From the NCBI RefSeq assembly GCF_028330985.1, contig NZ_JAQMUE010000080.1, positions 124,001 through 188,000 of the forward strand: DNA of 64,000 nucleotides, read 5' to 3'. Both the position numbers and the translations under genes were made by a program. The notes under the pieces are model-generated. The model did not search any database, was not told where the DNA came from, and saw only the letters and a list, made by a program, of their open reading frames with translations. This DNA comes from Roseofilum reptotaenium CS-1145 (GTDB taxonomy: Bacteria; Cyanobacteriota; Cyanobacteriia; Cyanobacteriales; Desertifilaceae). Of the stretch, positions 3,110 through 15,179 are shown one piece after another (position 1 is the first letter of the stretch; every line of letters begins with the position of its first letter).

Positions 3110-3370
3110 TATTCTCCAAACATCACTGCTTTGGATGAGCGATCGAGCTGAAACAGTTCCATGACACTGAGCAAACGGTAAAGTTGGTAATGTTGCTTCA
3201 CTCTGTGAGACCAAACAATTGATCGACGACTCCCGTGACTTACACTTGGTCTCCCATCTGGACATTAATCCCAGAACTAGAACCATCAAAGACAAAAAGA
3301 GGTGGTGGCGTTCCCATCAGTCAATATCGGCATTCTCTTCTTGGACAAATAAAGCCATTCAGGTTACCCG
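3110..3370 (-). pseudogene. Decayed fragment of a second copy of the extracellular nuclease
   Basis: This stretch aligns at nucleotide level with about 1595-1960 inside the intact nuclease gene. Shared blocks include CGATCGAGCTGAAACA, CTGGACATTAA and TTCTTGGACAAA. About 110 bases of the intact gene (roughly 1660-1780) are missing here, and short indels break the frame. A 65-codon minus-strand frame keeps the block LMSRWETKCK, which matches LMSRWAIKCK from the same alternate frame of the intact gene. No start, stop or flanking gene parts remain, so it is a relic of duplication or recombination. Confidence 0.75.
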
Positions 3371-3448: not shown

Positions 3449-4678
3449 ATGATTCAAGAACAAACAGAACATCACATAGGCTCTCAAATCGCCAGTCAGA
3501 ATCAAAGCGATTTAGCTGAAAAGAACTTGCTTTTGTGCTGTATTCGTTATCAATTAAATTCAGCTACTTCCTCTGATGTTTGCGGTTTACTCCGGACTAA
3601 TTTACACTGGGATATTCTGGTGCAAAATGCAGTTCAGAATAATGTCTTTATGATCCTGGTTCAAACTCTAAAAGCAACTCATCCAGAGGTCATTCCTTCA
3701 TCTGTATTGGAGAGAATAGAACTTAAAGTTCAACAACGAATGACCTATAATTTGTTTCTGACCAATAAACTGTTGCAAGTGCTGAACTTATTTGCAGAAC
3801 ATAATATTCAAGCCATTCCTTTTAAGGGGCCAATCTGGGCAAATTTGGCTTATGGTAATATGGTATTGAGAGAGTTTTCTGATTTGGATGTCTTAGTTCG
3901 TCCTCAAGATTTCTCTAAAGCTAAAGATGTGCTGATTGAGCAAGGGTATTATGACAAGAAATTTGGTGCAAATGAAGAGAGTCTTGGAGAAGCTCAGATG
4001 GTGTTACCCGATCGCCAAGTGAACATCGACGTACATTATAAGTTAGCGCCACAAGACTTTTATCTACAGATCGAGCCTGAACTCTTTTTTGAGGGCTTGC
4101 AAACTTTATCTTTTTTGGGGAAAGAAGTCGCCACATTCTCTCCAGAAAGTTGTATCGCTATTAGTTATCTTCAGGGAACAAAAGACAGTTGGAATACATT
4201 AAAAAGAATCTGTGATTTTGGAGCATTAATACAGACTTATCCAGAGGTGAATTGGCAGCAAGTTATGGCTCAATGTGGAACAGATGAGAGCGATCGCGTA
4301 TTTTTGCTGGGAGTTGCGATCGCCCAAACCTATCTACAGATTTCCCTTCCAGAGATATTTTCAGACAAGCTGAAGCAGTTTCCAGAAGTGGTGAAAGTTG
4401 CCAGACAACATAAAGAGTATATGTATCATAAAAACATGGAATATGGCTATATCTTCTTTATTATCAGTTTGTGGGAGAGAAGAGAAAACACTTTATGGAG
4501 TAGGTTGCAATATTTGCTAAAGATTATTTTTCGTGTGAATGCAAGCGATCGAGAATTATTTCCCCTGCCCGATCTTTTGTTTTTTGTCTATTATCCCCTG
4601 AGAATTGTCAGGTTAATCGGAAAGCATAAAATCACCAAAGAAAAAATATCGTCTCTCTGGAATTTATTCAAAGGTTGA
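3449..4678 (+). CDS. Nucleotidyltransferase-fold protein (NTP_transf_5 family), RiPP-locus type
   Basis: The 409-aa product has the family signature around residues 127-155: FKGPIWANLAYGN, then REFSDLDVLV, where the Asp-x-Asp pair would bind metal. A later VNIDVHYKL supplies a further acidic residue. PF14907-type proteins are recurrent members of lasso-peptide loci and are thought to add a nucleotide or act on the precursor; their exact job is not settled. The gene converges on the exporter gene with only 2 bases between the stops. The start is the first ATG and has no clear Shine-Dalgarno. The family call is firm; a role in peptide tailoring is inferred from context. Confidence 0.8.
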   Translation: MIQEQTEHHIGSQIASQNQSDLAEKNLLLCCIRYQLNSATSSDVCGLLRTNLHWDILVQNAVQNNVFMILVQTLKATHPEVIPSSVLERIELKVQQRMTYNLFLTNKLLQVLNLFAEHNIQAIPFKGPIWANLAYGNMVLREFSDLDVLVRPQDFSKAKDVLIEQGYYDKKFGANEESLGEAQMVLPDRQVNIDVHYKLAPQDFYLQIEPELFFEGLQTLSFLGKEVATFSPESCIAISYLQGTKDSWNTLKRICDFGALIQTYPEVNWQQVMAQCGTDESDRVFLLGVAIAQTYLQISLPEIFSDKLKQFPEVVKVARQHKEYMYHKNMEYGYIFFIISLWERRENTLWSRLQYLLKIIFRVNASDRELFPLPDLLFFVYYPLRIVRLIGKHKITKEKISSLWNLFKG

Positions 4679-4680
4679 TA

Positions 4681-6474
4681 TTATTGATAATACTTAGCTT
4701 GAATAGCAAACAAGCGAGCGTAAGTACCGCCTACTCCCAGCAATTCTTCGTGAGAGCCTGTTTCAACAATGCTACCATTTTCTAAAACAAAGATGCGATC
4801 GACCATCTTGACTGTAGACAGACGATGGCTGATGAGAATAGCGGTTTTTCCTTGAATCAGTTGACGGAATTGTTCAAATACTTCATATTCTGCCTCAGCA
4901 TCAAGTGCGCTGGTGGGTTCATCGAGAATCAGCAGTTGAGCTGGACGCAAAAATGCACGAGCGATCGCCACTTTTTGCCATTCGCCAATGCTCAATTCTT
5001 CTCCTTCTTCAAATTGCGTTCCTAACATGGTATCATAGCCTCTTGGCAGTCGAGAAATAATTCCTTCCGCTCCGGATTTTTGCGCGGCTTTGATGATATC
5101 TGGGTGATTATCAATATGGTCAATGTTCCCAAAGCCAATATTTTCTCGAACTGTTAAATTGTAGCGCACATAATCTTGAAACACGACACTTATGTTTCGT
5201 CGCCAATCGATAACAGAAAGTTCGCGCAAGTCAACGCCATCAATTGTAATTCGTCCATTTGTCGGATCGTAGAGACGACATAATAATTTAATTAACGTGG
5301 TTTTTCCTGCGCCATTTTCTCCCACTAACGCGACTGTTTCTCCTGCGGGAATCGTCAGATTAATGTCTTCGAGTAAGGGACGACGACTATGGGGATATTG
5401 GAAGGAAACATTTTCAAATCTTAAACCTTTTTGGAAAGGTTGAGGAAGCCATTGAGGATGGATCGGATTAGCAATAGTGGGTTTTAAGTCCAGGAATTCG
5501 TAAAGATGGGAGAGAAACAAACTATTTTCATATAAACTCGCTATATTAGACAGAAGCTGTCCTAAAAAGGCTTGACCTCGTTGAAAGCCTTGGTAATACA
5601 TGACCAAACTTCCGAGCGTGATTTCTCCTTGGATGGTTTGATAGGCAATAAAACTAAATACGGCAAAAATCGCGAGAATACCACTCAATTGAGTTAAAAA
5701 ATCGGCGATCGCCCGTTGCCGAGCCAGAGCTAATTTTTCTTGACGAATTTCCTGGCGTAGGTTATAATAACGTCGGCGAAATAGAGAGCCAAGATCGAAT
5801 AACCGGATTTCTTTGGCATAGGAATTCAGCGTCAGCATCCAATGGAAGTACCAAGCCATACGCTCTTTACCCGTCCAAGTTTTTTGCTGCCGGTACAGTA
5901 TTTTGCTCTGCTGTAAACGAACCAATAACACGGGAAGTGCTGCGGCTAATAAGACTAGACTAATTGACCAATGGAGGGAGAGCAGTAATGCGGCGATCGC
6001 CACCAGAGAAATTGCATTTTGAGCCAACTGTAGCAAACTATTGAGTAGGTTTTGCGGTCGATAGCTGGCTTCCTGTTGAGCGCGGTGGAGAGAATTATAA
6101 AAATTGGCATTTTCGTAATATTCCAGGTCAAGCTCAACGGATTTGCTGTGTAAAATATCATTGACAGAATCAGTAACAATTTGCGATTGAGCTTGGGTGG
6201 CATACCCAGATAAAGCCCGTAGTAGATTGGTAATCAGTGCCGTTATCCCCACCAGAATCACGATCGCCAGGACATCATAAAAGGCAGCCATCCCCTTGCC
6301 AATCCCCGCAGTCACCGTATCAATCAGTAACTTCATTAAATACAGTGAGGCTAACGGCAATAAACCTTGTAAGAAGACGAGGATAATCGTCAGAGTCGCC
6401 CAAAAGGGAGTGCTTTGCCAAACTAAAGCGATCGCTCTTTTCAGATTTTTGAGCAGTTGTAGTTGAGATTGCAT
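4681..6474 (-). CDS. ABC transporter, fused permease and ATPase (lasso-peptide exporter type, 'D' protein)
   Basis: A half-transporter of about 597 aa. Residues 20-310 hold the exporter-type transmembrane domain, with hydrophobic segments such as ATLTIILVFLQGLLPLASLY. The C-terminal 240 residues hold the nucleotide-binding domain: Walker A GENGAGKTT, Q-loop VVFQDYV, signature LSIGEWQK, Walker B LLILDEPTSALD and H-loop ISHRLSTV. There is no N-terminal C39 peptidase, unlike bacteriocin exporters that cut their own cargo. I chose ATG at 6474; a longer frame would begin with TTG at 6501 and overlap the oxygenase remnant. It is divergent from the cyclase gene and probably exports the mature peptide. 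Confidence 0.85.
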   Translation of the reverse strand: MQSQLQLLKNLKRAIALVWQSTPFWATLTIILVFLQGLLPLASLYLMKLLIDTVTAGIGKGMAAFYDVLAIVILVGITALITNLLRALSGYATQAQSQIVTDSVNDILHSKSVELDLEYYENANFYNSLHRAQQEASYRPQNLLNSLLQLAQNAISLVAIAALLLSLHWSISLVLLAAALPVLLVRLQQSKILYRQQKTWTGKERMAWYFHWMLTLNSYAKEIRLFDLGSLFRRRYYNLRQEIRQEKLALARQRAIADFLTQLSGILAIFAVFSFIAYQTIQGEITLGSLVMYYQGFQRGQAFLGQLLSNIASLYENSLFLSHLYEFLDLKPTIANPIHPQWLPQPFQKGLRFENVSFQYPHSRRPLLEDINLTIPAGETVALVGENGAGKTTLIKLLCRLYDPTNGRITIDGVDLRELSVIDWRRNISVVFQDYVRYNLTVRENIGFGNIDHIDNHPDIIKAAQKSGAEGIISRLPRGYDTMLGTQFEEGEELSIGEWQKVAIARAFLRPAQLLILDEPTSALDAEAEYEVFEQFRQLIQGKTAILISHRLSTVKMVDRIFVLENGSIVETGSHEELLGVGGTYARLFAIQAKYYQ

Positions 6475-6479
6475 CGGTG

Positions 6480-6617
6480 TTATTCTTCTCCCAAGAACCA
6501 ACTGACAATCGTCAATCGCTCCCCGGCCGTCACTGGCTTCACTTCATGCATCAGATCGCTCTCAAACAGGGTTAATTGATCGAACATTGACAGATTTTGG
6601 TTTAATTGAATAGCAAG
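6480..6617 (-). pseudogene. C-terminal remnant of a 2OG-Fe(II) oxygenase
   Basis: Reading the minus strand from about 6617 to the TAA at 6480-6482 gives roughly 45 codons ending a prolyl-4-hydroxylase/PKHD-type oxygenase. FESDLMHEVKPVTAGERLTI carries the distal iron-ligand His in LMHEV and the Arg of GERL that holds 2-oxoglutarate, then VSWFLGEE and stop. A TGA precedes the fragment, and the N-terminal two thirds, including the HxD motif, are absent. It sits in the divergent gap between the exporter and cyclase genes, so a tailoring oxygenase may once have belonged to this locus. Confidence 0.7.
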
Positions 6618-6638: not shown

Positions 6639-8447
6639 ATGAGCGGTATTGTCGGTATTGTCAATGGGGACGGTCAACCCATTGATACCAATCTTTTACA
6701 GCAAATGACCGATTTAATGAGACCTCAAGCTCCTGATGCTAGGGATATATGGAGTGAGGGGTATGTGGGTTTCGGTCATGCTCTCTTGCGGACAACCTGG
6801 GAATCGGAAAATGAACAGCAACCTCTGGGTTTAAATGGGAAGATTTGGATTACCGGGGATATCCGCTTGGATCGCCGTCAGGAGCTAATTGAACGCTTGC
6901 GTGCTTCGGGATGCAATCTAGAGAACAATGCGCCTGATGTTGACTTGGTTTTACATGCCTATCAGGTTTGGGGAGACGCTTGTTTAGAACGACTGAGCGG
7001 GGATTTTGCTTTTGCCATTTGGGATAGCCACGAACAACGTTTATTTTGTGCCAGAGACCAGTTTGGCATTGTCCCCTTTTATTATGCACAAATGGGGCAA
7101 ACTCTGGTGTTTAGCAATCATCTCAATACCGTGCGCTTCCATCCTGGAGTATCCGATCGCCTGAATGAGAGCGCGATCGCCGATTTCCTCCTCTTTGGTA
7201 ACAACATGGATCGGGCGACCACCACCTTTGCCGATATCCAGAAATTGCCCCCCGCTCACACCCTAATTTACTCTGAAGGTAGAATTAACATTCAGCGTTA
7301 CTGGCAATTGCCCGAAGATGTGGAATACCTGAATTATCAACACCCGGAAGAATATGTCGAGCAGTTTCGGGAATTATTTGAACACTCAGTTGCAGACAGA
7401 CTGCGAACCCATATCGCTGGTAGCAATTTAAGCGGGGGAATGGACTCCACCAGTATTGCCGCTACTGCTTATAGGTTAATGAAGGCAAACCATTCCTCGG
7501 TAGACTTTCGAGCTTACACTATTATATATAAGCAACTGATTCCCGACGACGAAGGAGACTATGCCGCGCAAGTTGCTGAAATGGCAGGTTTTCCAATTGA
7601 GTATCTGGTAGCAGAAGACTACATCGGGCAAGCCCCTCCAGAACACCCAGATTATATATATCCCGAACCCCTATTAATTCCCACCCAAGTGGCTGAAGTC
7701 GATCTGACGCGGCGCGTAGCAGCATACAGTCGGGTGCGACTAGCTGGGTTTGGCGGCGATCCGGCATTCGAGCCAGTGCCCTCTTCCCAGGATAAGTTGC
7801 GACAGGATCGGAATAATATTTTGGGTTACATCGACTCCCTTCGCGCCCGAGTGAGGTTGCGAACCCGGTTGCACCAGTGGCTCAAAAGAGAGCCGCAAGA
7901 GCAACAAACGATTGATTTTCCTGACTGGTTTAACCCAGATTTCGCCGAACGAATGCAATTGAAAGCGCGACAGGAAGAAATATATGAAACATATAGGGTC
8001 TCGCCCCAGAGAGATCGCTACGGGATGGCGACTGCTCCCTTGTGGTCAAACATATTTTCTTGGTCCGATCCGGGCTTCACTGGTTTTCCTCTTAAAGCTC
8101 GCTTTCCCTTTTTCGATTTGCGCTTGGTATCATACTTGCTTTCTGTGCCGCCTACTCCCTGGTTTGAAAATAAATTCTTGCTCAGGGAAGCTATGAAAGG
8201 TCTGTTGCCCGAGTCCGTTCGCCAGCGACCTAAAACAACCCTGCAAGGGTTTCCTCATTACACTTTCATGCAGCAGCACGGACTTCAGCCCTGGATGGTG
8301 GAATTGATGACTGCACCAGAACTAACAAACTATGTCAACAGCGAGCTCCTGCTGCAAAAACTGCAATCGATTGGACAACTAACTCCTGCAAGCTATAATC
8401 AAGCTGGTCTAGTTCTGCACTTGGCATACTGGTTGCGTCACCAATAA
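6639..8447 (+). CDS. Asparagine-synthetase-like lasso cyclase ('C' protein)
   Basis: The 602-aa product has the class-B asparagine synthetase architecture. Residues 1-210 are a glutamine-amidotransferase domain, but it starts MSGIVGIV, with Ser where the glutaminase Cys2 should be, so ammonia release is unlikely. The synthetase domain carries the PP-loop SGGMDSTSIAATA near residue 264. This pairing is typical of lasso cyclases, which adenylate an Asp or Glu side chain so that the peptide N-terminus closes a macrolactam. I chose ATG 6639 because it aligns with family starts; an upstream TTG at 6606 would add 11 unrelated residues. The precursor gene follows after 60 bases. Confidence 0.87.
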   Translation: MSGIVGIVNGDGQPIDTNLLQQMTDLMRPQAPDARDIWSEGYVGFGHALLRTTWESENEQQPLGLNGKIWITGDIRLDRRQELIERLRASGCNLENNAPDVDLVLHAYQVWGDACLERLSGDFAFAIWDSHEQRLFCARDQFGIVPFYYAQMGQTLVFSNHLNTVRFHPGVSDRLNESAIADFLLFGNNMDRATTTFADIQKLPPAHTLIYSEGRINIQRYWQLPEDVEYLNYQHPEEYVEQFRELFEHSVADRLRTHIAGSNLSGGMDSTSIAATAYRLMKANHSSVDFRAYTIIYKQLIPDDEGDYAAQVAEMAGFPIEYLVAEDYIGQAPPEHPDYIYPEPLLIPTQVAEVDLTRRVAAYSRVRLAGFGGDPAFEPVPSSQDKLRQDRNNILGYIDSLRARVRLRTRLHQWLKREPQEQQTIDFPDWFNPDFAERMQLKARQEEIYETYRVSPQRDRYGMATAPLWSNIFSWSDPGFTGFPLKARFPFFDLRLVSYLLSVPPTPWFENKFLLREAMKGLLPESVRQRPKTTLQGFPHYTFMQQHGLQPWMVELMTAPELTNYVNSELLLQKLQSIGQLTPASYNQAGLVLHLAYWLRHQ

Positions 8448-8507: not shown

Positions 8508-8669
8508 ATGCGACAAATAAATGAAAACCAAGGAAATACTGCCGAGCACAGGGAATACCGCACTCCCAAACTGCGGAAATTTGGCAGTGTGAGCGAGCTG
8601 ACTCTGACTCAGCCTCGTCCTGCCACCGGGAATGATGGCGGTTCATTCTTTAATCAGTATGGTTCCTAA
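8508..8669 (+). CDS. Lasso-type RiPP precursor peptide
   Basis: The 53-aa product has the leader signature Y17-x2-P20-x-L22-x3-G26-x4-L31-T32, which binds the RRE domain in known lasso systems. The following segment, TLTQPRPATGNDGGSFFNQY, then Gly-Ser, is the presumed core. D43 is the only acidic residue after the leader. A 7-, 8- or 9-residue macrolactam on D43 requires the core to start at R37, P36 or Q35. T34 would be the penultimate leader residue if the core begins at P36. F47, F48 and Y51 could act as plugs. The C-terminal Ser is a plausible target of the kinase encoded next. The class call is good; the cleavage site is uncertain. Confidence 0.78.
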   Translation: MRQINENQGNTAEHREYRTPKLRKFGSVSELTLTQPRPATGNDGGSFFNQYGS

Positions 8670-8810
8670 TTCCAACTTTCGAGTTTTTGACCTGACTTGA
8701 ATGTCGCGATGAATCAAGCACTGTTATCTGCCTTTTGGGCATGATGGCAGTGTTTGGTTAATCCCCAATCGATCGTCAACACTAGCAATCCCATAAGCAT
8801 TTTAGATAAA

Positions 8811-9794
8811 ATGGAGCAATCCTTTAGATATGCGACTTATGGCTTAACCTTAGAGGCGAACCAGCCTCTTCCCGGTCTAACGCCTGCGAGTGCTAATACG
8901 CCCGTAGATGTTTGGGTCGATCTGAATGGGATGTTGCGATCGCCGTTAACCGACGATCTTCCCTCTGGAATAGACTGGATAGAAAAAGCAGATGGCACCT
9001 ACTTACAGATCTGGTTTCGCGGAGACGGACGATACGGACACGTTAATTTCGAGATAGACTCTGATGCGACTCATATCAAAGCAACTTGGCCTCAGTCTCG
9101 TATCGAAGATGTGACAACGTTATTGGTAGGACAGGTTCTCGCTTGTGCCTTGCGCTTGCGAGGTATGCTCTGTCTTCATGCTTGCGTCGTAGAAACCGAC
9201 GGCCGGGCGATCGCGATCGTCGGGGAAACAGGAGCTGGAAAGTCAACGACGGCAGCCGCTTTGGCTAATCGAGGATACTCGATTCTAGCCGATGATATTG
9301 CAGTTCTCCAGGAGTGCGAAGAACATTTCCTGGTACAACCCGGATATCCTCGCCTGCGACTGTGGCCGCAAAGTGTGAATGCTCTCTACGGTTCGGAAGC
9401 TGACTTAACCAAGATTTTCCGATCTTCGGAGAAACGTTTTCTCGATTTAAGCGATAACAGTAAGTCTGACACCGCTTGGCAGTTTCAGAGCGAACCATTG
9501 CCCTTGGTGGCTATCTACATTCTTGGAGAACGGAAGCTGGGTTTAGAAGCGCCAAAGATAGAACCCATTCCTCCAGCAATAGCAGTGATGAAGTTGATGC
9601 AGCAGCGCTCTGTAAGTCATTTCAAATTAGATGCGGACAAGCAAGGGCGGGAGTTTGCTGGTTTTGGTCGCGTCGCCAGGCAAGTCCCCGTGCGCGCGAT
9701 CTCTCGCAAGGATAGCTTGGAGGCATTGCCCCAACTCTGCGATGCTATTTTGGCAGATTTGGCTGGTACAACTATCTCCGCAAGCTATAAATAA
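8811..9794 (+). CDS. HPr-kinase-like protein of the lasso locus
   Basis: The 327-aa product has a P-loop GETGAGKSTTAAALANRG near residue 143, followed by the ILADDIAVL motif seen in the C-terminal domain of HPr kinase/phosphorylase. The N-terminal 130 residues are a beta-rich domain without the HprK signature. Homologues in lasso clusters (paeninodin type) phosphorylate the C-terminal Ser of the precursor, and the precursor here ends in Gly-Ser, so that role is a reasonable inference. I chose ATG 8811; a TTG at 8754 would lengthen it by 19 residues with no visible ribosome site. It lies 141 bases after the precursor stop. Confidence 0.8.
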   Translation: MEQSFRYATYGLTLEANQPLPGLTPASANTPVDVWVDLNGMLRSPLTDDLPSGIDWIEKADGTYLQIWFRGDGRYGHVNFEIDSDATHIKATWPQSRIEDVTTLLVGQVLACALRLRGMLCLHACVVETDGRAIAIVGETGAGKSTTAAALANRGYSILADDIAVLQECEEHFLVQPGYPRLRLWPQSVNALYGSEADLTKIFRSSEKRFLDLSDNSKSDTAWQFQSEPLPLVAIYILGERKLGLEAPKIEPIPPAIAVMKLMQQRSVSHFKLDADKQGREFAGFGRVARQVPVRAISRKDSLEALPQLCDAILADLAGTTISASYK

Positions 9795-9815: not shown

Positions 9816-10395
9816 GTGCCAGAAGTTTACATCATCGGCGGTTGTAACGGTTCCGGCAAAACAACTACCGCAATGAAATTGTTGCCAAACAGTTTAAAAT
9901 TGCTTGAGTACGTCAATGCTGATGAAATTGCGGCTGGACTCTCACCATTTAATCCTGAGTCTGTCGCCATCCAAGCTGGACGCTTGATGCTAGAACGGTT
10001 AAATTCACTATCCGATGCTGGAGCTGATTTTGCATTTGAAACCACCCTTGCCTCTCGCCATTATGTCCGATTCTTGCAACGCTGTAAAACTAAAGGGTAT
10101 GCGGTTAATTTAATTTATTTTTGGTTGGTCAGCCCGGAATTAGCGATCGCCCGCGTAGGCACGGGTGGCTAGTGGAGGGCATAATATTCCTGAAGCAACT
10201 ATCCGTCGTCGTTATGAAAGAGGCAGAAAAAATTTCAGCCAATTGTATTTGCCATTAAGCGATAGTTGTATTGTCTGCAACAATTCAGGGTTAGACATTC
10301 AATTAGTAGCTAGTTATAATAGCGAAGCCTCCAAGCCCATCGTTTATCAAGCGGAAATCTGGAGTTCAATTACTGGAGATATAGATGAACCCTAA
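9816..10395 (+). pseudogene. Zeta-toxin-family kinase, frameshifted
   Basis: Two adjacent frames together encode one zeta-toxin/AAA-like protein. The first (GTG 9816 to TAG 10172) has the P-loop GGCNGSGKTTTAMKLL, an Asn-Ala-Asp motif and FAFETTLASRHY. The second resumes near 10161 with VASGGHNIPEATIRRRYERG, a typical continuation. The break is in GTAGGCACGGGTGGCTAG, where a 2-base loss or 1-base gain would explain the shift. It could be an inactivated gene, a sequencing error or recoding. The family acts on UDP-sugars or other small substrates. The start is GTG, 21 bases after the kinase gene. Confidence 0.75.
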
Positions 10396-10567
10396 AAATC
10401 CTCCCCTTTCACCACTGCATCAAAAAATTTATGCGGGTGTGAAACAAGCTATTGCCGAGGCGATCGAGAGACATCGCAAACTGGGCCAATCAATTAGTAT
10501 TTGGCAAGATGGAAAGGTTGTTACTATCGAGAGCGACAAAATACCACCTCTGGAAAAAGATATATAG
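10385..10567 (+). CDS. Small protein paired with the zeta-toxin-family gene
   Basis: A 60-aa protein overlapping the end of the zeta-toxin-like frame by 11 bases. It begins MNPKNPPLSPLHQKIYAGVK and contains the helix IAEAIERHRKLGQSISIW. Short proteins of this kind commonly follow such P-loop genes in cyanobacteria and are candidate antitoxins. That role is inferred from position and size only. Confidence 0.6.
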   Translation: MNPKNPPLSPLHQKIYAGVKQAIAEAIERHRKLGQSISIWQDGKVVTIESDKIPPLEKDI

Positions 10568-10641: not shown

Positions 10642-11898
10642 ATGATGGAATTCAATCCCAGAAATGCAGCATTTCGCGCCAATCCATATCCCGTCTACGA
10701 TCGCCTCCGCGCCACAGACCCCATCCATTACCGGCAGTCAACAGAAGATTGGATTTTGACGCGCTATGCTGATATTGTGACCCTTCTCAAAGATAATCGC
10801 ATCGATCCTCGCGATGGAGTAGAGCCACTGGGCGATCGAACCGAGCCACATCCGCAAGACCTGCAAACTCCTCAAGATAGACAAAACCCACTTCTCGATC
10901 GGTTTTTGCATTTGCGGGAAGAAAGCCAAAGGCTCAGACAACATTGGATTATTGTCACCAATCCACCGCAGCACGATCGCCTACAGAAGGTACTCAATCC
11001 AGGATTTACCCATCAAAAGATTAGCCGTCTCGAACCGCACCTGCAAATGATGGCCGATCGCGCTATTGATAAGGTACTGGCATCGGGAAATATGGACATC
11101 ATTGAAGATTTTGCTTATCCGCTTGTGGTCGAAGCTATCTCAGAACTTCTCGGAATCCCTGTAGAAGATCGCCAGCGCCTCGTGCCCCTTGCGCGGGAGA
11201 TCGCCCTATCCATCGATCTGAATAAATCCCAGACCACTTACGAACGGGGTCAATTCGCATTGACAAATCTGACACAATACTTTCGCAAATTAATTTCCCA
11301 ATTGCTCGAGGCTACAGAGCCACAGGACAATCTTATGGGCACAATGCTTCACGCACAAGCCCAAGGAGAACTGAGCGAAGACGAGCTGCTCGCGAACAGT
11401 ACATTTTTATTTTTTACGGGTCAAGGTTCCAATCACCATATTATCGGCAATGGGATGCTCGCCCTCCTGCGCCATCCCGAGCAATTGCGCTTGCTGCAAA
11501 ACAATTCAACTTTGATGAAAACGGCGATCGATGAATGCTTGCGCTACGACGGCCCGGGACAGTACATTATCAGGAGGCCCTTAGCCGATATTGAAATAGG
11601 CGGTCAAACCATTCGGAAAGGAGAGAAAATGATTTTGGTTATTGGTGCGGCGAACCGCGATCCAGAGCAATTTCTCGAACCCGATAAGTTTGATATTTGC
11701 CGCCAGCCTAACCCATATCTTACCTTTGGTTATGGGATGCGTTCCTGCATGGGGTCGAGGCTGGCTAAGTTAGTCGCGCGGATAGGGGTAGGAACATTGA
11801 TCAGTCGCTTACCGAAAATTACCTTGGCTAATGAAAACCCAGAATGGGAAGAATCTTATAAGGCTCACGGACTAAAATCCTTACAAGTATTGTTCTAG
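10642..11898 (+). CDS. Cytochrome P450 (first of two)
   Basis: The 418-aa soluble P450 has no membrane anchor. The heme-ligand motif is FGYGMRSCMG near residue 362 with Cys as thiolate. The ExxR helix shows as DECLRY, and RRPLADIEIGG matches the conserved beta region. The I-helix reads FFTGQGSNHHIIGNG, where most P450s have AGxET or AGxDT, so the acid-alcohol pair that delivers protons to bound oxygen is absent. It opens a cassette with 4 bases to the next gene. Its N-terminus FNPRNAAFRANPYPVYDRLR is closely matched by the second P450, so the two are paralogues. Substrate unknown. Confidence 0.93.
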   Translation: MMEFNPRNAAFRANPYPVYDRLRATDPIHYRQSTEDWILTRYADIVTLLKDNRIDPRDGVEPLGDRTEPHPQDLQTPQDRQNPLLDRFLHLREESQRLRQHWIIVTNPPQHDRLQKVLNPGFTHQKISRLEPHLQMMADRAIDKVLASGNMDIIEDFAYPLVVEAISELLGIPVEDRQRLVPLAREIALSIDLNKSQTTYERGQFALTNLTQYFRKLISQLLEATEPQDNLMGTMLHAQAQGELSEDELLANSTFLFFTGQGSNHHIIGNGMLALLRHPEQLRLLQNNSTLMKTAIDECLRYDGPGQYIIRRPLADIEIGGQTIRKGEKMILVIGAANRDPEQFLEPDKFDICRQPNPYLTFGYGMRSCMGSRLAKLVARIGVGTLISRLPKITLANENPEWEESYKAHGLKSLQVLF

Positions 11899-11902
11899 CC
11901 CA

Positions 11903-12973
11903 ATGAACTCCACTCTCAGAGAGTCCATCGATCTCCTTTTGCCCCATCTGATGCCAACATTAGTGAACCCTGATGCGGCATTGGGGTTAAAAGCATTAGC
12001 GAGCAATCTAGCCCCCATTCTGCGGGGTGGCTTTGAATGCCGCCTCAGTACCAACTCCTCCCCAGTCGATTTCCAGCAGTGCGTTGTACCCGACGAGAGT
12101 GAGTGGACTGTGCTGGAAGAACACATTTCTGCTGTTGTTACTTCAACTAACAGCATATCGGTAGATCCAAGAGCGTCCCAATTGCAAGATTTCTTGGCTC
12201 AATGGCAGTTATCCCTTCAGTCAATTTCGGAAATTTGGTTAGAGTATGATATTGATGATTCATCAGTTTTTCTGCCCCTCCCCGCCATTTTCTTCGGATT
12301 GCCACAAGAGGTATCGCCAGCCATTGAAACCTATGCTATTGCTACCCAATCCCTGGATTTACTTCTAGGTTCTTTGGGTTGGCACGAGTGGCAGGATAAT
12401 CTGGAGCAATGCTTTAGGGCTTGTCCTGATGGGGTATTTATTAGTCATATCGGTGTGATGCTCTCTCGAAACTCACCCGCTTTGCGAGTTAATGTTAAAC
12501 GTTTGCAACCCGATTTGTTAATTCCCTATTTGCAAGAAATTGGCTGGCAGGAGGAAACTGAGGAACTCGAAGCTTTGATGATACAATTATTCGGGTTAGT
12601 CGATCGCCTAACGGTATGTCTGGATGTCGGTCAGATCGTTTATCCCCAAATTGGCTTAGAATGTATTTTCCTCCAACAGCCTCCAGACGAAACCCGTTGG
12701 GCTATTTTCTTAGATTATTTAGTAGAACGAGGGTTATGCTTGCCTGACAAGCCAGAGGCTTTATTAAGCTGGCCAGGTCAAACGAATCCTCTAAATGCTA
12801 AAGTATCTTGGCCGAGTGACTTAATTGCCGCTTCTCTTTTGCAGCCTAGGGATCGTTTTACGATATTCGATCGCCGCTTAAGTCATATTAAGGTGGTTTG
12901 GCGATCGCCAGATTCCTTAGAAGCCAAAGCTTATCTGTGGTTTGAACATCAGTGGTTATCTGGGAAAAGTTAA
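11903..12973 (+). CDS. Protein of unknown function in the P450 cassette
   Basis: I do not recognise the family of this 356-aa protein. It has no signal peptide or membrane segment. Visible features are alternating hydrophobic strands such as ISEIWLEYDID, ALRVNVKRLQPDLLIPYL, DRLTVCLDVGQIVYPQIGLE and FDRRLSHIKVVWRS, and repeated tryptophans, suggesting a mixed alpha/beta soluble enzyme or barrel. Length and strand pattern would allow an ABBA-type prenyltransferase fold, but no diagnostic motif supports that. It lies 4 bases after the first P450 and 2 bases before the methyltransferase start, so it is almost certainly co-translated with them. Confidence 0.7.
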   Translation: MNSTLRESIDLLLPHLMPTLVNPDAALGLKALASNLAPILRGGFECRLSTNSSPVDFQQCVVPDESEWTVLEEHISAVVTSTNSISVDPRASQLQDFLAQWQLSLQSISEIWLEYDIDDSSVFLPLPAIFFGLPQEVSPAIETYAIATQSLDLLLGSLGWHEWQDNLEQCFRACPDGVFISHIGVMLSRNSPALRVNVKRLQPDLLIPYLQEIGWQEETEELEALMIQLFGLVDRLTVCLDVGQIVYPQIGLECIFLQQPPDETRWAIFLDYLVERGLCLPDKPEALLSWPGQTNPLNAKVSWPSDLIAASLLQPRDRFTIFDRRLSHIKVVWRSPDSLEAKAYLWFEHQWLSGKS

Positions 12974-12975
12974 CA

Positions 12976-13749
12976 ATGAATACCCGTTCCGAAACAAATT
13001 GCGATTTAGATCGGTTTTATTCTGCCGAATCGGTTAGTGAATGGCAAGAAATTATTGGTGGAGATCTACATTACCATTTTGGCTATTTTCGCGGTTCCGA
13101 AGATTTAGAAACGGGTTTAAAGCAAACCGTGAGAAATTTTTATCCTTATATCCCTGCTGGCACACGGGTTTTAGATATTGGCTGCGGTTGGGGAGGACCG
13201 GCCAAAATGCTAATTAGCGATCGCAATTGCTCGGTAACCGGAATATCATTGAGTAGCACCCAAGTCGAGTATTGCCAGAGCCTGGGTTTAAATGTTTGGC
13301 AGCAAGACTTGGAGCTAGAAACAGAGGAAATCAGAGGGGAATACGATCTAATATTTTGCCTGGAAATGATGTCTCATATCAGAAACAAAGCTAGACTGCT
13401 GGAGCGGCTGCGATCGTTAGCCCCACGCCTGCTCCTTTCAGTCAACTGTATTACAGATAACTATTGGGGAGAAAGGACGACTTTTGGCGAATCAATGGAA
13501 CTTTGTACGGTTTCAGAATTGACCCAATATCTGGAGCAAGCAGGCTGGCAAATTAATTATATCAAAAACAAGCGATTTCAATCATTGCGGACGATCGCAC
13601 TGTGGAAAGAAAATCTAGATCGCGTTTATGGCGATCGCCAGCCTCCCGGACAGCTTGCTATCCTTCGTGCTCTTGTAGATGCAGCACTGCGAGATCCAGT
13701 GGGCTGGTGCCAGTCATTTCCCCTAATCGACATTGTGGCAGAAAGATGA
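12976..13749 (+). CDS. SAM-dependent methyltransferase of the P450 cassette
   Basis: The 257-aa class I methyltransferase has motif I VLDIGCGWGGPAKML near residue 65 and a motif IV region YDLIFCLEMMSHI. The N-terminal GGDLHYHFGYFRG resembles enzymes of the GPP-methyltransferase and cyclopropane-fatty-acid-synthase-like group. I chose ATG 12976, just after the preceding stop, over an in-frame GTG at 12952. Its stop overlaps the start of the second P450 (ATGA), showing translational coupling. The methyl acceptor is unknown and is probably a product or substrate of the P450s. Confidence 0.88.
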   Translation: MNTRSETNCDLDRFYSAESVSEWQEIIGGDLHYHFGYFRGSEDLETGLKQTVRNFYPYIPAGTRVLDIGCGWGGPAKMLISDRNCSVTGISLSSTQVEYCQSLGLNVWQQDLELETEEIRGEYDLIFCLEMMSHIRNKARLLERLRSLAPRLLLSVNCITDNYWGERTTFGESMELCTVSELTQYLEQAGWQINYIKNKRFQSLRTIALWKENLDRVYGDRQPPGQLAILRALVDAALRDPVGWCQSFPLIDIVAER

Positions 13750-14981
13750 GTGAAAAAATACCTTTACCCTTTAATCCGCGATCGCCAGAATTTCGCGCCA
13801 ACCCCTATCCTACCTATGATTACCTGCGAACTCACCATCCGATCTACTATCGACCGGAACGAAACGATTGGGTGCTGACGCGCTACGCTGATATTGTGGA
13901 AGCTCTGACCAACCCTAGCTTTGGGAGATCGGAATCGGGGCTAGCAGGAGTGACAACCGCTAACCAAGAGGCAATTCACCATTTTTTGTCTTTGCGTCAG
14001 GATAGTCAAAGACTGATGGCGCTGTGGTTGGTGCTTCGCAATCCGCCAGATCATACGAGAATCCGTCAATCGTTAGTGGCTCCTTTCAGTCCAACACGAA
14101 TTAAAACATGGCGATCGCGCATTCAGGAGAAAGTTGACGACCTCATTGAGCGCGCGAAAGAGCGGGGCATAATGGATATTATCAAGGATTTCGCTTATCC
14201 GCTTACCCTTGATGTAAATTGTGAGATATTGGGAATTCCAAAATCAGAATGGCATCCGCGCTTTCAACAATGGTCAGAGGGCTTGTCTGCAGTGGGAGAC
14301 TTGGACGCAACTGCGATCGCTAACGAGAAAGGTTTGCTGGCGATCGCTGGTTTGGCCCAATATTTCCGCAGCTTAATTGCTAAACACTACAGCGATCGCC
14401 AACCGCAAGAGAATCTAATTAGCACCCTAGTTCAAGCACAAGCTGAGGGTCAATTGAGCGAAGAAGAACTGATTGCCAATTGCATCCTCCTATTTTTTGC
14501 TGGAGATTCAACAACTAAGCATTTAATTGGCAACAGCATCTTAACTTTGCTCGATCATCCCCAGCAGCTAAGACAGCTACAAGCAAATCCGTCTTTAATA
14601 GAAACGACTATATCTGAAGTTTTGCGCTATGAAGGCCCGTTTCAAGTCGTCTCGCGCACGGCACTGTCCGATATTCAACTCTCAAATACAACCATTCATC
14701 GGGGTGAAATCGTCAATTGCATGTTAGCTGCTGGTAATCGAGACCCTGCCAAGTTTCCCAACCCAGAGAAGTTTGATATTCAGCGCCAACCCAATCCCTA
14801 TCTTTCTTTCGGTCGAGGAATTCATATTTGTCTGGGGAGGCATTTGGGTAAATTATTGGCAGAAATTGCCGTGGGTACGCTGGTAAACCGCTTGCCTGAA
14901 TTATCCATAGCAACCGAATCCCTTGAATGGGAAGATACTTTTCTAGCACGCGGTTTGAAATCATTACCCGTCGTCTTTTGA
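13746..14981 (+). CDS. Cytochrome P450 (second of two)
   Basis: The 411-aa soluble P450 has heme motif FGRGIHICLG near residue 352, ExxR helix SEVLRY and I-helix FFAGDSTTKHLIGN. Unlike the first P450 it keeps the Thr-Thr of the I-helix, although the acidic position is Ser. The start ATG overlaps the methyltransferase stop by 4 bases; a longer frame from 13602 would overlap the methyltransferase gene throughout and is rejected. The last 18 bases overlap the end of the convergent Nif11-type gene. The pair probably arose by duplication and then diverged in catalysis. Confidence 0.93.
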   Translation: MSEKIPLPFNPRSPEFRANPYPTYDYLRTHHPIYYRPERNDWVLTRYADIVEALTNPSFGRSESGLAGVTTANQEAIHHFLSLRQDSQRLMALWLVLRNPPDHTRIRQSLVAPFSPTRIKTWRSRIQEKVDDLIERAKERGIMDIIKDFAYPLTLDVNCEILGIPKSEWHPRFQQWSEGLSAVGDLDATAIANEKGLLAIAGLAQYFRSLIAKHYSDRQPQENLISTLVQAQAEGQLSEEELIANCILLFFAGDSTTKHLIGNSILTLLDHPQQLRQLQANPSLIETTISEVLRYEGPFQVVSRTALSDIQLSNTTIHRGEIVNCMLAAGNRDPAKFPNPEKFDIQRQPNPYLSFGRGIHICLGRHLGKLLAEIAVGTLVNRLPELSIATESLEWEDTFLARGLKSLPVVF

Positions 14982-15179
14982 ATACAGCAACCCGCGCATT
15001 GCCCAGTCATGTTTGTGCGCTTCATTCAGTTCAGCCACGGTGAAATGGAGTCCCAGTTCAGAACCGAGTTGAACAAAGCCTTCTAAGTTCGGGTTTTTAT
15101 TGAGGGCTAAAAGTCGAGTTTTGAATTGTTCATCTGCACGAAATTGCTCGATAAAGTGTAATGCTACTTGGACAGACAT
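14964..15179 (-). CDS. Nif11-domain small protein
   Basis: The 71-aa product begins MSVQVALHFIEQFRADEQFK and shows the helical Nif11 layout, with ELGLHFTVAELNEA at the second helix. The domain serves as the leader of many RiPP precursors, but here no Gly-Gly cleavage motif or Cys/Ser/Thr-rich core follows; the protein ends LLYSKDDG. It may be a stand-alone Nif11 protein or a precursor that lost its core. Its 3' end overlaps the second P450 gene by 18 bases in convergent orientation. Confidence 0.75.
   Translation of the reverse strand: MSVQVALHFIEQFRADEQFKTRLLALNKNPNLEGFVQLGSELGLHFTVAELNEAHKHDWAMRGLLYSKDDG

What the first reader, a model, noticed from the sequence alone, without database searches (positions are those of the whole stretch)
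10642..14981. Compact P450 - unknown - methyltransferase - P450 cassette
Four genes are spaced by 4, 2 and -4 bases. Two paralogous P450s flank a protein I cannot classify and a methyltransferase. No backbone synthase is present, so they likely modify a product made elsewhere, possibly the neighbouring RiPP. No such cassette is known to me.
Basis: partly seen in the sequence, partly recalled or inferred. Interest (0 to 1): 0.65.

Follow-up and report, generated by a model that had tools for sequence, protein, structure and literature searches.

The report
Prenylation cassette beside a lasso peptide
In a cyanobacterium, a four-gene cassette next to a lasso-peptide gene cluster most likely decorates that small knotted peptide with an isoprenoid, methyl and oxygen groups; its 'unknown' protein looks like a peptide prenyltransferase, and a small leader-like protein travels with the cassette.

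Summary
The four genes and their 4, 2 and -4 base spacings are real. The 356-aa protein matches no Pfam or NCBIfam model. It belongs to a RiPP-linked family whose members are fused elsewhere to a 2OG oxygenase, to methyltransferases and to an MstE-like terpene cyclase. The last is the architecture of the published αββα prenyltransferase NctPC. One of two low-confidence fold models also points to ABBA prenyltransferases (10 of 10 top rows; the other model 0 of 50 rows). I read it as a peptide prenyltransferase.

The cassette belongs to a lasso cluster. P450B orthologues were found in 7 of 388 order genomes and a 71-aa Nif11-domain protein convergent with them in the same 7 (of 376). P450A is the exception: a 44% paralogue found only here. 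The conserved unit is prenyltransferase-methyltransferase-P450B plus Nif11.

All 6 cassette precursors read have a core Tyr near the C-terminus and a terminal Ser; of 25 non-cassette lasso precursors 2 have a core Tyr, 2 a terminal Ser, and 0 end in Y-x-S. Best reading: Tyr prenylation plus oxidation and methylation. Main doubt: lasso peptide or Nif11 tail as substrate.

The parts
10642..11898 (+). P450A, lineage-specific paralogue
   Evidence: PF00067 83.7 bits; heme FGYGMRSCMG, ExxR present, I-helix TGQGSN without the usual acid; no orthologue above 47% in 388 genomes
11903..12973 (+). 356-aa protein, probable ABBA-type peptide prenyltransferase
   Evidence: no Pfam/NCBIfam match; family fused to an MstE-like cyclase, 2OG oxygenase and methyltransferases; invariant E45, W112, E114, G184, G251, E253, P304, K330, K342, Y344 in 19 sequences
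12976..13749 (+). SAM methyltransferase, CMAS/Methyltransf_23-like
   Evidence: PF02353 5.5e-14; nearest solved chain 6bqc 1.4e-9
13746..14981 (+). P450B, the conserved P450 of the cassette
   Evidence: PF00067 99.5 bits; orthologues of 62-95% identity in six other genomes
14964..15179 (-). Nif11-domain-only protein (71 aa), convergent with P450B
   Evidence: PF07862 2.3e-7; the same seven genomes as P450B; TIGR03798 below its cut-off
8508..8669 (+). lasso precursor (53 aa from the ATG), core ending NQYGS
   Evidence: leader YRTPKLRKFGSVSELTLT, homologous ORF in the five other neighbourhoods
6639..8447 (+). lasso macrolactam synthetase (C)
   Evidence: Asn_synthase 1.6e-34; best NCBIfam match NF033535, 376.8 bits, below its cut-off of 525
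8754..9794 (+). HPr-kinase-like protein, probable lasso kinase
   Evidence: Hpr_kinase_C 32.7 bits against a cut-off of 33.3; HprK_rel_A best NCBIfam match, below cut-off
4681..6501 (-). ABC transporter (D)
   Evidence: ABC_tran 4.2e-37
3449..4678 (+). nucleotidyltransferase
   Evidence: NTP_transf_5 1.3e-45

Best explanation
The four genes are the tailoring part of a cyanobacterial lasso-peptide cluster. Shown here: the 356-aa protein belongs to a RiPP-linked family that also forms a fusion with an MstE-type terpene cyclase; the unit of this protein, methyltransferase and P450B, with a Nif11-domain protein, goes with one clade of lasso cyclase and precursor. Inferred: the 356-aa protein is an ABBA-type peptide prenyltransferase that puts an isoprenoid on an aromatic residue, most likely the conserved Tyr near the C-terminus of the lasso core (NQYGS here). 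P450B, and in this genome P450A, oxidise the isoprenoid or the aromatic ring. The methyltransferase methylates the product, possibly the isoprenoid itself. The HPr-kinase-like protein phosphorylates the terminal Ser and the nucleotidyltransferase may add to it. The Nif11 protein is a dedicated helper, perhaps a docking partner for a prenyltransferase whose relatives work on Nif11-leader precursors.
For: Family members carry an MstE-like cyclase domain (L109: PDB 6sbf E 2e-116; its N-terminal domain is 31.5% identical to the window protein), the architecture described for the αββα enzyme NctPC (passage of PMC13290415). Nif11 precursors next to the family end in Trp, Tyr or Phe in 42 of 56 cases, against 1 of 13 Nif11 hits in genomes without the family. 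One model's first ten Foldseek rows are all ABBA prenyltransferases and 46 of 50 rows on realignment. Lasso link: same seven genomes in two searches; cassette cyclases are 69% or more identical to the window's, all others 50% or less; cassette precursors have core Tyr and terminal Ser in 6 of 6, non-cassette precursors in 2 and 2 of 25, and none of the 25 ends in Y-x-S. The lasso-type proteins form one clade at 100/100.
Against: No activity is shown. NctPC and MppC sequences were not in hand, so kinship to them rests on architecture and setting. Both fold models are poor (pLDDT 37 and 40); the second fold search gave 0 of 50 ABBA rows, no Foldseek hit reached E 0.001 and the Z-scores (up to 6.9) are in the range the tool calls common. 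hhalign against LynF is not significant (E 0.071) and one of the 20 control families scores slightly better (E 0.043). The family otherwise goes with Nif11 and NHLP precursors, so the Nif11 protein could be the substrate. MppC did not work with its leader supplied in trans (PMC12715784), which speaks against a trans-acting Nif11 helper. B1 and B2 are missing from this locus.
Confidence: 0.6

Rival explanations
1. The cassette modifies the Nif11-domain protein itself: its conserved tail (AHKHDWAMRGLLYSKDDG here) is a core peptide, and the lasso cluster is a neighbour with its own product or a partner product.
For: The family goes with Nif11-type precursors in 31 of 55 neighbourhoods, including GG-less Nif11 proteins ending in Tyr beside methyltransferase fusions (L101, L103). 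The tail is the most conserved part of the seven Nif11 proteins: 9 of 13 positions invariant at 54-66 against 18 of 53 before. In L026 the methyltransferase is truncated and the tail Tyr is His.
Against: No GG site and no peptidase-type transporter seen in the locus; the gene is contiguous with lasso B2-B1 on one strand in L024, L026 and L144. It does not explain why precursor and cyclase differ between cassette and non-cassette lasso clusters.
Confidence: 0.25
2. The 356-aa protein is not an enzyme but a peptide-binding adaptor that brings tailoring enzymes to RiPP precursors.
For: It is fused to three different kinds of enzyme domain and the common factor is a leader-bearing precursor.
Against: Ten invariant residues in 19 sequences, among them two Glu, two Lys and a Tyr, in strand-like segments, and the NctPC-like fusion, suggest an active site.
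Confidence: 0.06
3. The cassette serves an unrelated small molecule and only sits beside the lasso genes.
For: P450s and methyltransferase are generic; two genes of other kinds (zeta-like remnant, 60-aa ORF) lie between kinase and cassette.
Against: Same order in six lasso neighbourhoods and same seven genomes in two searches.
Confidence: 0.04
4. In this genome the cluster is decaying: it has lost B1, B2 and the 2OG oxygenase, so the cassette may have no product here although relatives use it.
For: No B1 or B2 in the locus; a 35-codon oxygenase remnant at 6480-6587.
Against: All four cassette frames, cyclase, precursor and Nif11 are open, and prenyltransferase, MT and P450B are 86-95% identical to L023. 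The genome has one PqqD-type and one Transglut_core3-type gene elsewhere that could serve in trans. This rival can hold together with the main reading of the enzymes.
Confidence: 0.15

Closest known systems
NctPC (Hubrich et al. 2024, not held; seen in a passage of the review PMC13290415)
   Same: αββα prenyltransferase with low similarity to cyanobactin enzymes; its P domain is fused to an MstE-like cyclase, as in family members L108/L109; acts on a RiPP.
   Different: The window protein is a single domain, about 32% identical to the L109 domain, sits in a lasso cluster and has a Tyr, not Trp, as candidate site. NctPC's own sequence was not compared.
MppC of Moorena producens (PMC12715784, main text read)
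   Same: Cyanobacterial αββα prenyltransferase tied to a Nif11 leader, acting on an aromatic residue of the core.
   Different: MppC acts on a macrocyclised lanthipeptide with the leader in cis and failed with the leader in trans; here the Nif11 domain is a separate protein and the main candidate is a lasso peptide.
Collinodin and other prenylated lasso peptides (titles in reference lists and one sentence each of PMC12715784 and PMC13352647; papers not held)
   Same: Lasso peptides with prenylation; collinodin's title also names iterative oxidation.
   Different: The enzyme families there could not be compared; PMC13352647 speaks of Trp prenylation; no Nif11 protein is mentioned in what I saw.
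Paeninodin/pseudomycoidin lasso clusters (passages of PMC9266682)
   Same: HPr-kinase-like gene and nucleotidyltransferase, phosphorylation of a C-terminal Ser.
   Different: In the passages seen these have no prenyltransferase, P450 or Nif11 gene.
AgeMTPT, bifunctional methyltransferase-prenyltransferase (recalled; title only in a reference list)
   Same: A methyltransferase joined to a peptide prenyltransferase, as in L101 and L103.
   Different: As recalled, AgeMTPT is a cyanobactin enzyme; the window protein does not match the cyanobactin model TIGR04445.

Membership tests
ABBA (αββα) peptide prenyltransferase, NctPC kind | sequence kinship to a prenyltransferase domain that is fused to an MstE-like cyclase | tested here: met
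   N-terminal domain of L109, 31.5% identity, blastp 1e-38; its C-terminal domain is MstE-like, E 2e-116.
ABBA (αββα) peptide prenyltransferase, NctPC kind | αββα barrel fold | tested here: inconclusive
   Models with pLDDT 37 and 40; one gives 10 of 10 ABBA top rows, the other 0 of 50.
ABBA (αββα) peptide prenyltransferase, NctPC kind | prenyl transfer to a peptide | not testable with these tools
   Needs an assay.
Cyanobactin prenyltransferase (TIGR04445, LynF/TruF) | match to the family model | tested here: not met
   No NCBIfam match at E <= 1 for the window protein, and TIGR04445 not among the families matched by 19 members; hhalign E 0.071.
Lasso-peptide cluster | precursor with a YxxPxLxxxG-type leader, Asn-synthase-type cyclase and ABC exporter | tested here: met
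   The cyclase is below the cut-off of the cyanobacterial lasso model NF033535.
Lasso-peptide cluster | B1 (PqqD-type) and B2 (Transglut_core3) in the locus | tested here: not met
   Not in this locus; single matches elsewhere in the genome. Present beside P450B in L024, L026 and L144.
Nif11-type RiPP precursor (the 71-aa protein) | Nif11 domain | tested here: met
   PF07862 31.4 bits against a cut-off of 23.8.
Nif11-type RiPP precursor (the 71-aa protein) | GG-type site followed by a core; match to the precursor model TIGR03798 | tested here: not met
   No GG; TIGR03798 23.8 bits against a cut-off of 32.3.
Cytochrome P450 (both) | heme-ligand motif with Cys and ExxR | tested here: met
   Alignment.
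Cytochrome P450 (both) | I-helix acid-alcohol pair | tested here: not met
   Acid replaced by Ser in seven P450B and by Gly in P450A; it is also absent in 3 of 13 other cyanobacterial P450s aligned.
PadeK/PsmK-type lasso kinase | HPr-kinase-like domain and a terminal Ser on the precursor | tested here: inconclusive
   Hpr_kinase_C 32.7 bits against 33.3; terminal Ser in 6 of 6 cassette precursors.

The most novel reading that the evidence does not exclude
The Nif11-only protein is a leader working in trans: a stand-alone docking protein, encoded together with lasso B1-B2 in three relatives, that lets a prenyltransferase from a leader-dependent lineage act on a lasso peptide that lacks that leader. 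The product would be a prenylated, methylated, P450-oxidised and phosphorylated lasso peptide.
Probability: 0.22. Interest if true: 0.8.

Novelty: new variant of a known kind. Interest (0 to 1): 0.62.

Why it matters
It gives a probable chemistry to a protein without domain annotation and to its RiPP-linked family (53 of 388 genomes of the order sample). It predicts cyanobacterial lasso peptides with an isoprenoid and oxidative tailoring at a conserved Tyr. It also offers a natural test of how RiPP enzymes move between precursor classes, because a free Nif11 leader-like protein was found in the same seven genomes as the cassette P450.

Tried and rejected
Sequence searches of the 356-aa protein: no Pfam or NCBIfam match at E <= 1; PDB matches were chance level (best E 0.48 and, with a profile, 0.47); members scanned one by one gave only single weak matches. 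Profile-profile comparison with LynF/TruF was not significant and one control family scored slightly better; comparison of the supposed five repeats with each other was also inconclusive. A LynF profile finds only its own family in the PDB, so these misses say little. Structure prediction with three close sequences was poor twice; one model's fold hits were scattered, 0 of 50 ABBA, and I count that against the fold claim. PalQ was considered because it prenylates C-terminal Trp, but it is an isoprene-synthase-type enzyme (part 1 of 4 of PMC10853753 read). The P450s match the CDPS-associated model TIGR04538 best, far below its cut-off (175.2 and 206.1 against 500). One scan of viral contigs gave no relative. 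Plasmid records gave four relatives, one in Azospirillum. A second control set of Nif11 precursors from plasmids was too small to use (3 records).

Limits of the counts. The order and phylum samples are drawn evenly from larger groups and the search scores only a few candidates per genome (four, five), so 'found only in' means in these samples. The control is small: 13 Nif11 hits from 7 of 12 genomes, of which 5 look like GG-type precursors (1 of 5 aromatic); the 56 and 20 members on the other side are not independent of each other. Precursors were found in 23 of 26 non-cassette loci searched. Loci L086 and L089 were left out as duplicates of L023 and L024 (inferred from equal contig lengths and positions). 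L120 is among the 55 neighbourhoods but its family gene was not called there (54 of 55). One spurious ORF in L025 met the leader pattern and is not in the 25. In one search the true/false column for Tyr in the cassette rows is a script slip (it looked for the letters 'Tyr'); I used the printed Tyr positions. The core boundary pattern there stopped one or two residues later in the cassette rows; the Tyr, ending and terminal-Ser counts do not depend on it.
Full report
Observation. The four frames and spacings are as stated: P450A 10642-11898, unknown 11903-12973, methyltransferase 12976-13749, P450B 13746-14981. The held genome (5.67 Mb, 113 contigs, cyanobacterial by its relatives) has no other P450 match at E <= 0.001. 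Upstream on the same strand lie a lasso cyclase, a short lasso precursor (8508-8669) and an HPr-kinase-like gene; an ABC exporter lies on the other strand, and a nucleotidyltransferase beyond it on the + strand.

Conserved unit. Close relatives of the unknown protein (57-86% identity) lie in five other genomes. In all five the order is ABC, cyclase, precursor, HPr kinase, unknown, methyltransferase, P450B, with the nucleotidyltransferase beyond the ABC gene in four; small other genes lie between kinase and unknown in some and between methyltransferase and P450B in two. In L026 the methyltransferase is cut to about its first 68 residues. A further genome (G418) has P450B and Nif11 at a contig end and a shortened cyclase on another contig. 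P450A was not found in any of them: outside this genome its best matches in 388 genomes are the P450B orthologues at 45-47%, then 41% and less. In a tree of 21 P450s, P450A and the seven P450B form one clade at 100/100, with P450A outside the P450B clade (100/99). So P450A is an old paralogue kept, or acquired, only here. In L023, whose cassette proteins are 86-95% identical, about 20 bases stand where the window has P450A.

A partner not in the finding. Convergent with P450B lies a 71-aa protein with a Nif11 domain (PF07862, E 2.3e-7) and no GG site. Searched in 376 genomes of the order it is found at E <= 1e-8 in seven, the same seven genomes that carry P450B orthologues, each time next to P450B. 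In L024, L026 and L144 it is contiguous with lasso B2 and B1 on one strand.

What the unknown is. It has relatives in 16 of 386 phylum genomes and, with a profile, in 53 of 388 order genomes. Of 55 neighbourhoods read, 31 hold a Nif11-type precursor family, 12 an NHLP-type family, 14 a LanM-like family and 6 a lasso cyclase (one representative of each of the first three checked by Pfam). Nine of 57 family proteins are longer than 480 residues. Those checked are fused to a 2OG-Fe(II) oxygenase domain (L032), to methyltransferase domains (L101, L103) and to an MstE-like terpene cyclase (L109, PDB 6sbf E 2e-116). The last is the architecture reported for NctPC, an αββα prenyltransferase that puts geranylgeranyl on Trp (passage of PMC13290415). 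MppC, another cyanobacterial αββα enzyme, prenylates a Trp of a Nif11-leader lanthipeptide, needs that leader and failed when it was supplied in trans (main text of PMC12715784). Precursors next to the family fit such a role: 42 of 56 Nif11 members (in 22 of 31 loci) and 8 of 20 NHLP members end in Trp, Tyr or Phe, against 1 of 13 Nif11 hits in genomes where the family was not found (hits in seven of twelve such genomes). The lasso-type proteins are one clade at 100/100 within the family. Fold evidence is mixed: one poor model has ABBA prenyltransferases as its first ten Foldseek rows, best E 0.13, and as 46 of 50 realigned rows; the other model has none in 50.

What it acts on. All six cassette precursors share LRKFG or LKKFG in the leader, DGG in the core, a Tyr three residues from the end (six in L025) and a terminal Ser. 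Of 25 precursors of other cyanobacterial lasso clusters, two have a core Tyr, none ends in Y-x-S and two end in Ser. Cassette cyclases are 69% or more identical to the window's; the other cyclases found are at 50% or below. Precursor, cyclase and cassette thus differ together from other clusters, which favours the lasso peptide as substrate. The family's usual setting with Nif11 precursors, and the conserved Nif11 tail (9 of 13 positions invariant against 18 of 53 before it), keep the Nif11 protein open as substrate or helper.

P450s and methyltransferase. Both P450s keep the heme and ExxR motifs but lack the usual I-helix acid (Ser in all seven P450B, Gly in P450A); 3 of 13 other cyanobacterial P450s in the alignment lack it too. 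The best solved match of both is the P450-like enzyme of biotin biosynthesis, 3ejb. From general knowledge of P450s, hydroxylation and oxidative coupling both stay open. The methyltransferase is cyclopropane-synthase-like with only weak solved relatives, so O-, N- and C-methylation remain possible; the fused domain in L101 also scores against a geranyl-diphosphate C-methyltransferase model, far below its cut-off.

Verdict. A real, conserved RiPP tailoring module. I put the prenyltransferase assignment at about 0.85 and the whole reading, with the lasso peptide as target, at 0.6. Known kinds of parts stand in a combination, with a free Nif11 partner, that I did not find described in the searches made; the papers on NctPC and collinodin were not held.

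Noticed in passing
6480-6587 (-): A 35-codon ORF joins the first and last parts of a 2OG-Fe(II) oxygenase that is intact in L023 (212 aa, PF13640 2.8e-13) and L024; the middle is missing here, and L025 also has only remnants.
   Followed up: partly
9816-10567 (+): A zeta-toxin-like ORF (118 aa, PF06414 8.3e-11) stops and a further stretch continues in another frame (10159-10395), followed by a 60-aa ORF (10385-10567) with relatives in L023 and L025.
   Followed up: partly
8508-8669: Ring size is odd: counted after the second T of LTLT the conserved Asp is at core position 8 or 9 but Pro would be residue 1 in 4 of 6 precursors; counted from the first T it is at position 10 or 11 (my count on the sequences).
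   Followed up: no
G000:C79 (loci L043, L044): The only PqqD-type match of the genome sits in a second lasso cluster (cyclase 42% identical) and the only Transglut_core3 match stands about 127 kb away, so B1 and B2 are split.
   Followed up: partly
L037 10190-14771, L095, L102: Family loci with a tryptophan halogenase (PF04820 1.6e-143 in L037) have Nif11 precursors ending in Trp (CSQW), as if the same residue were halogenated and prenylated.
   Followed up: no
L032 and L034 precursor arrays: Six Nif11 precursors in a row in each, with variable cores that all end in KW, beside the fused prenyltransferase/2OG protein.
   Followed up: no
NC_013855.1 (L148, 9001-10050): A relative of the 356-aa protein (28.4%, E 2e-25) on a plasmid of Azospirillum sp. 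B510, outside cyanobacteria; the record has no annotation.
   Followed up: no
G000:C68:45915-46667 (L052): The same genome also has a LynF/TruF-type cyanobactin prenyltransferase (E 8.4e-85).
   Followed up: no
1770-1958 and 3174-3359: Two stretches about 75% alike, upstream of the nucleotidyltransferase gene.
   Followed up: no
L026 7116-8811: The methyltransferase is cut to about its first 68 residues, the tail Tyr of the Nif11 protein is His, and the prenyltransferase homologue carries an insertion of about 55 residues.
   Followed up: no
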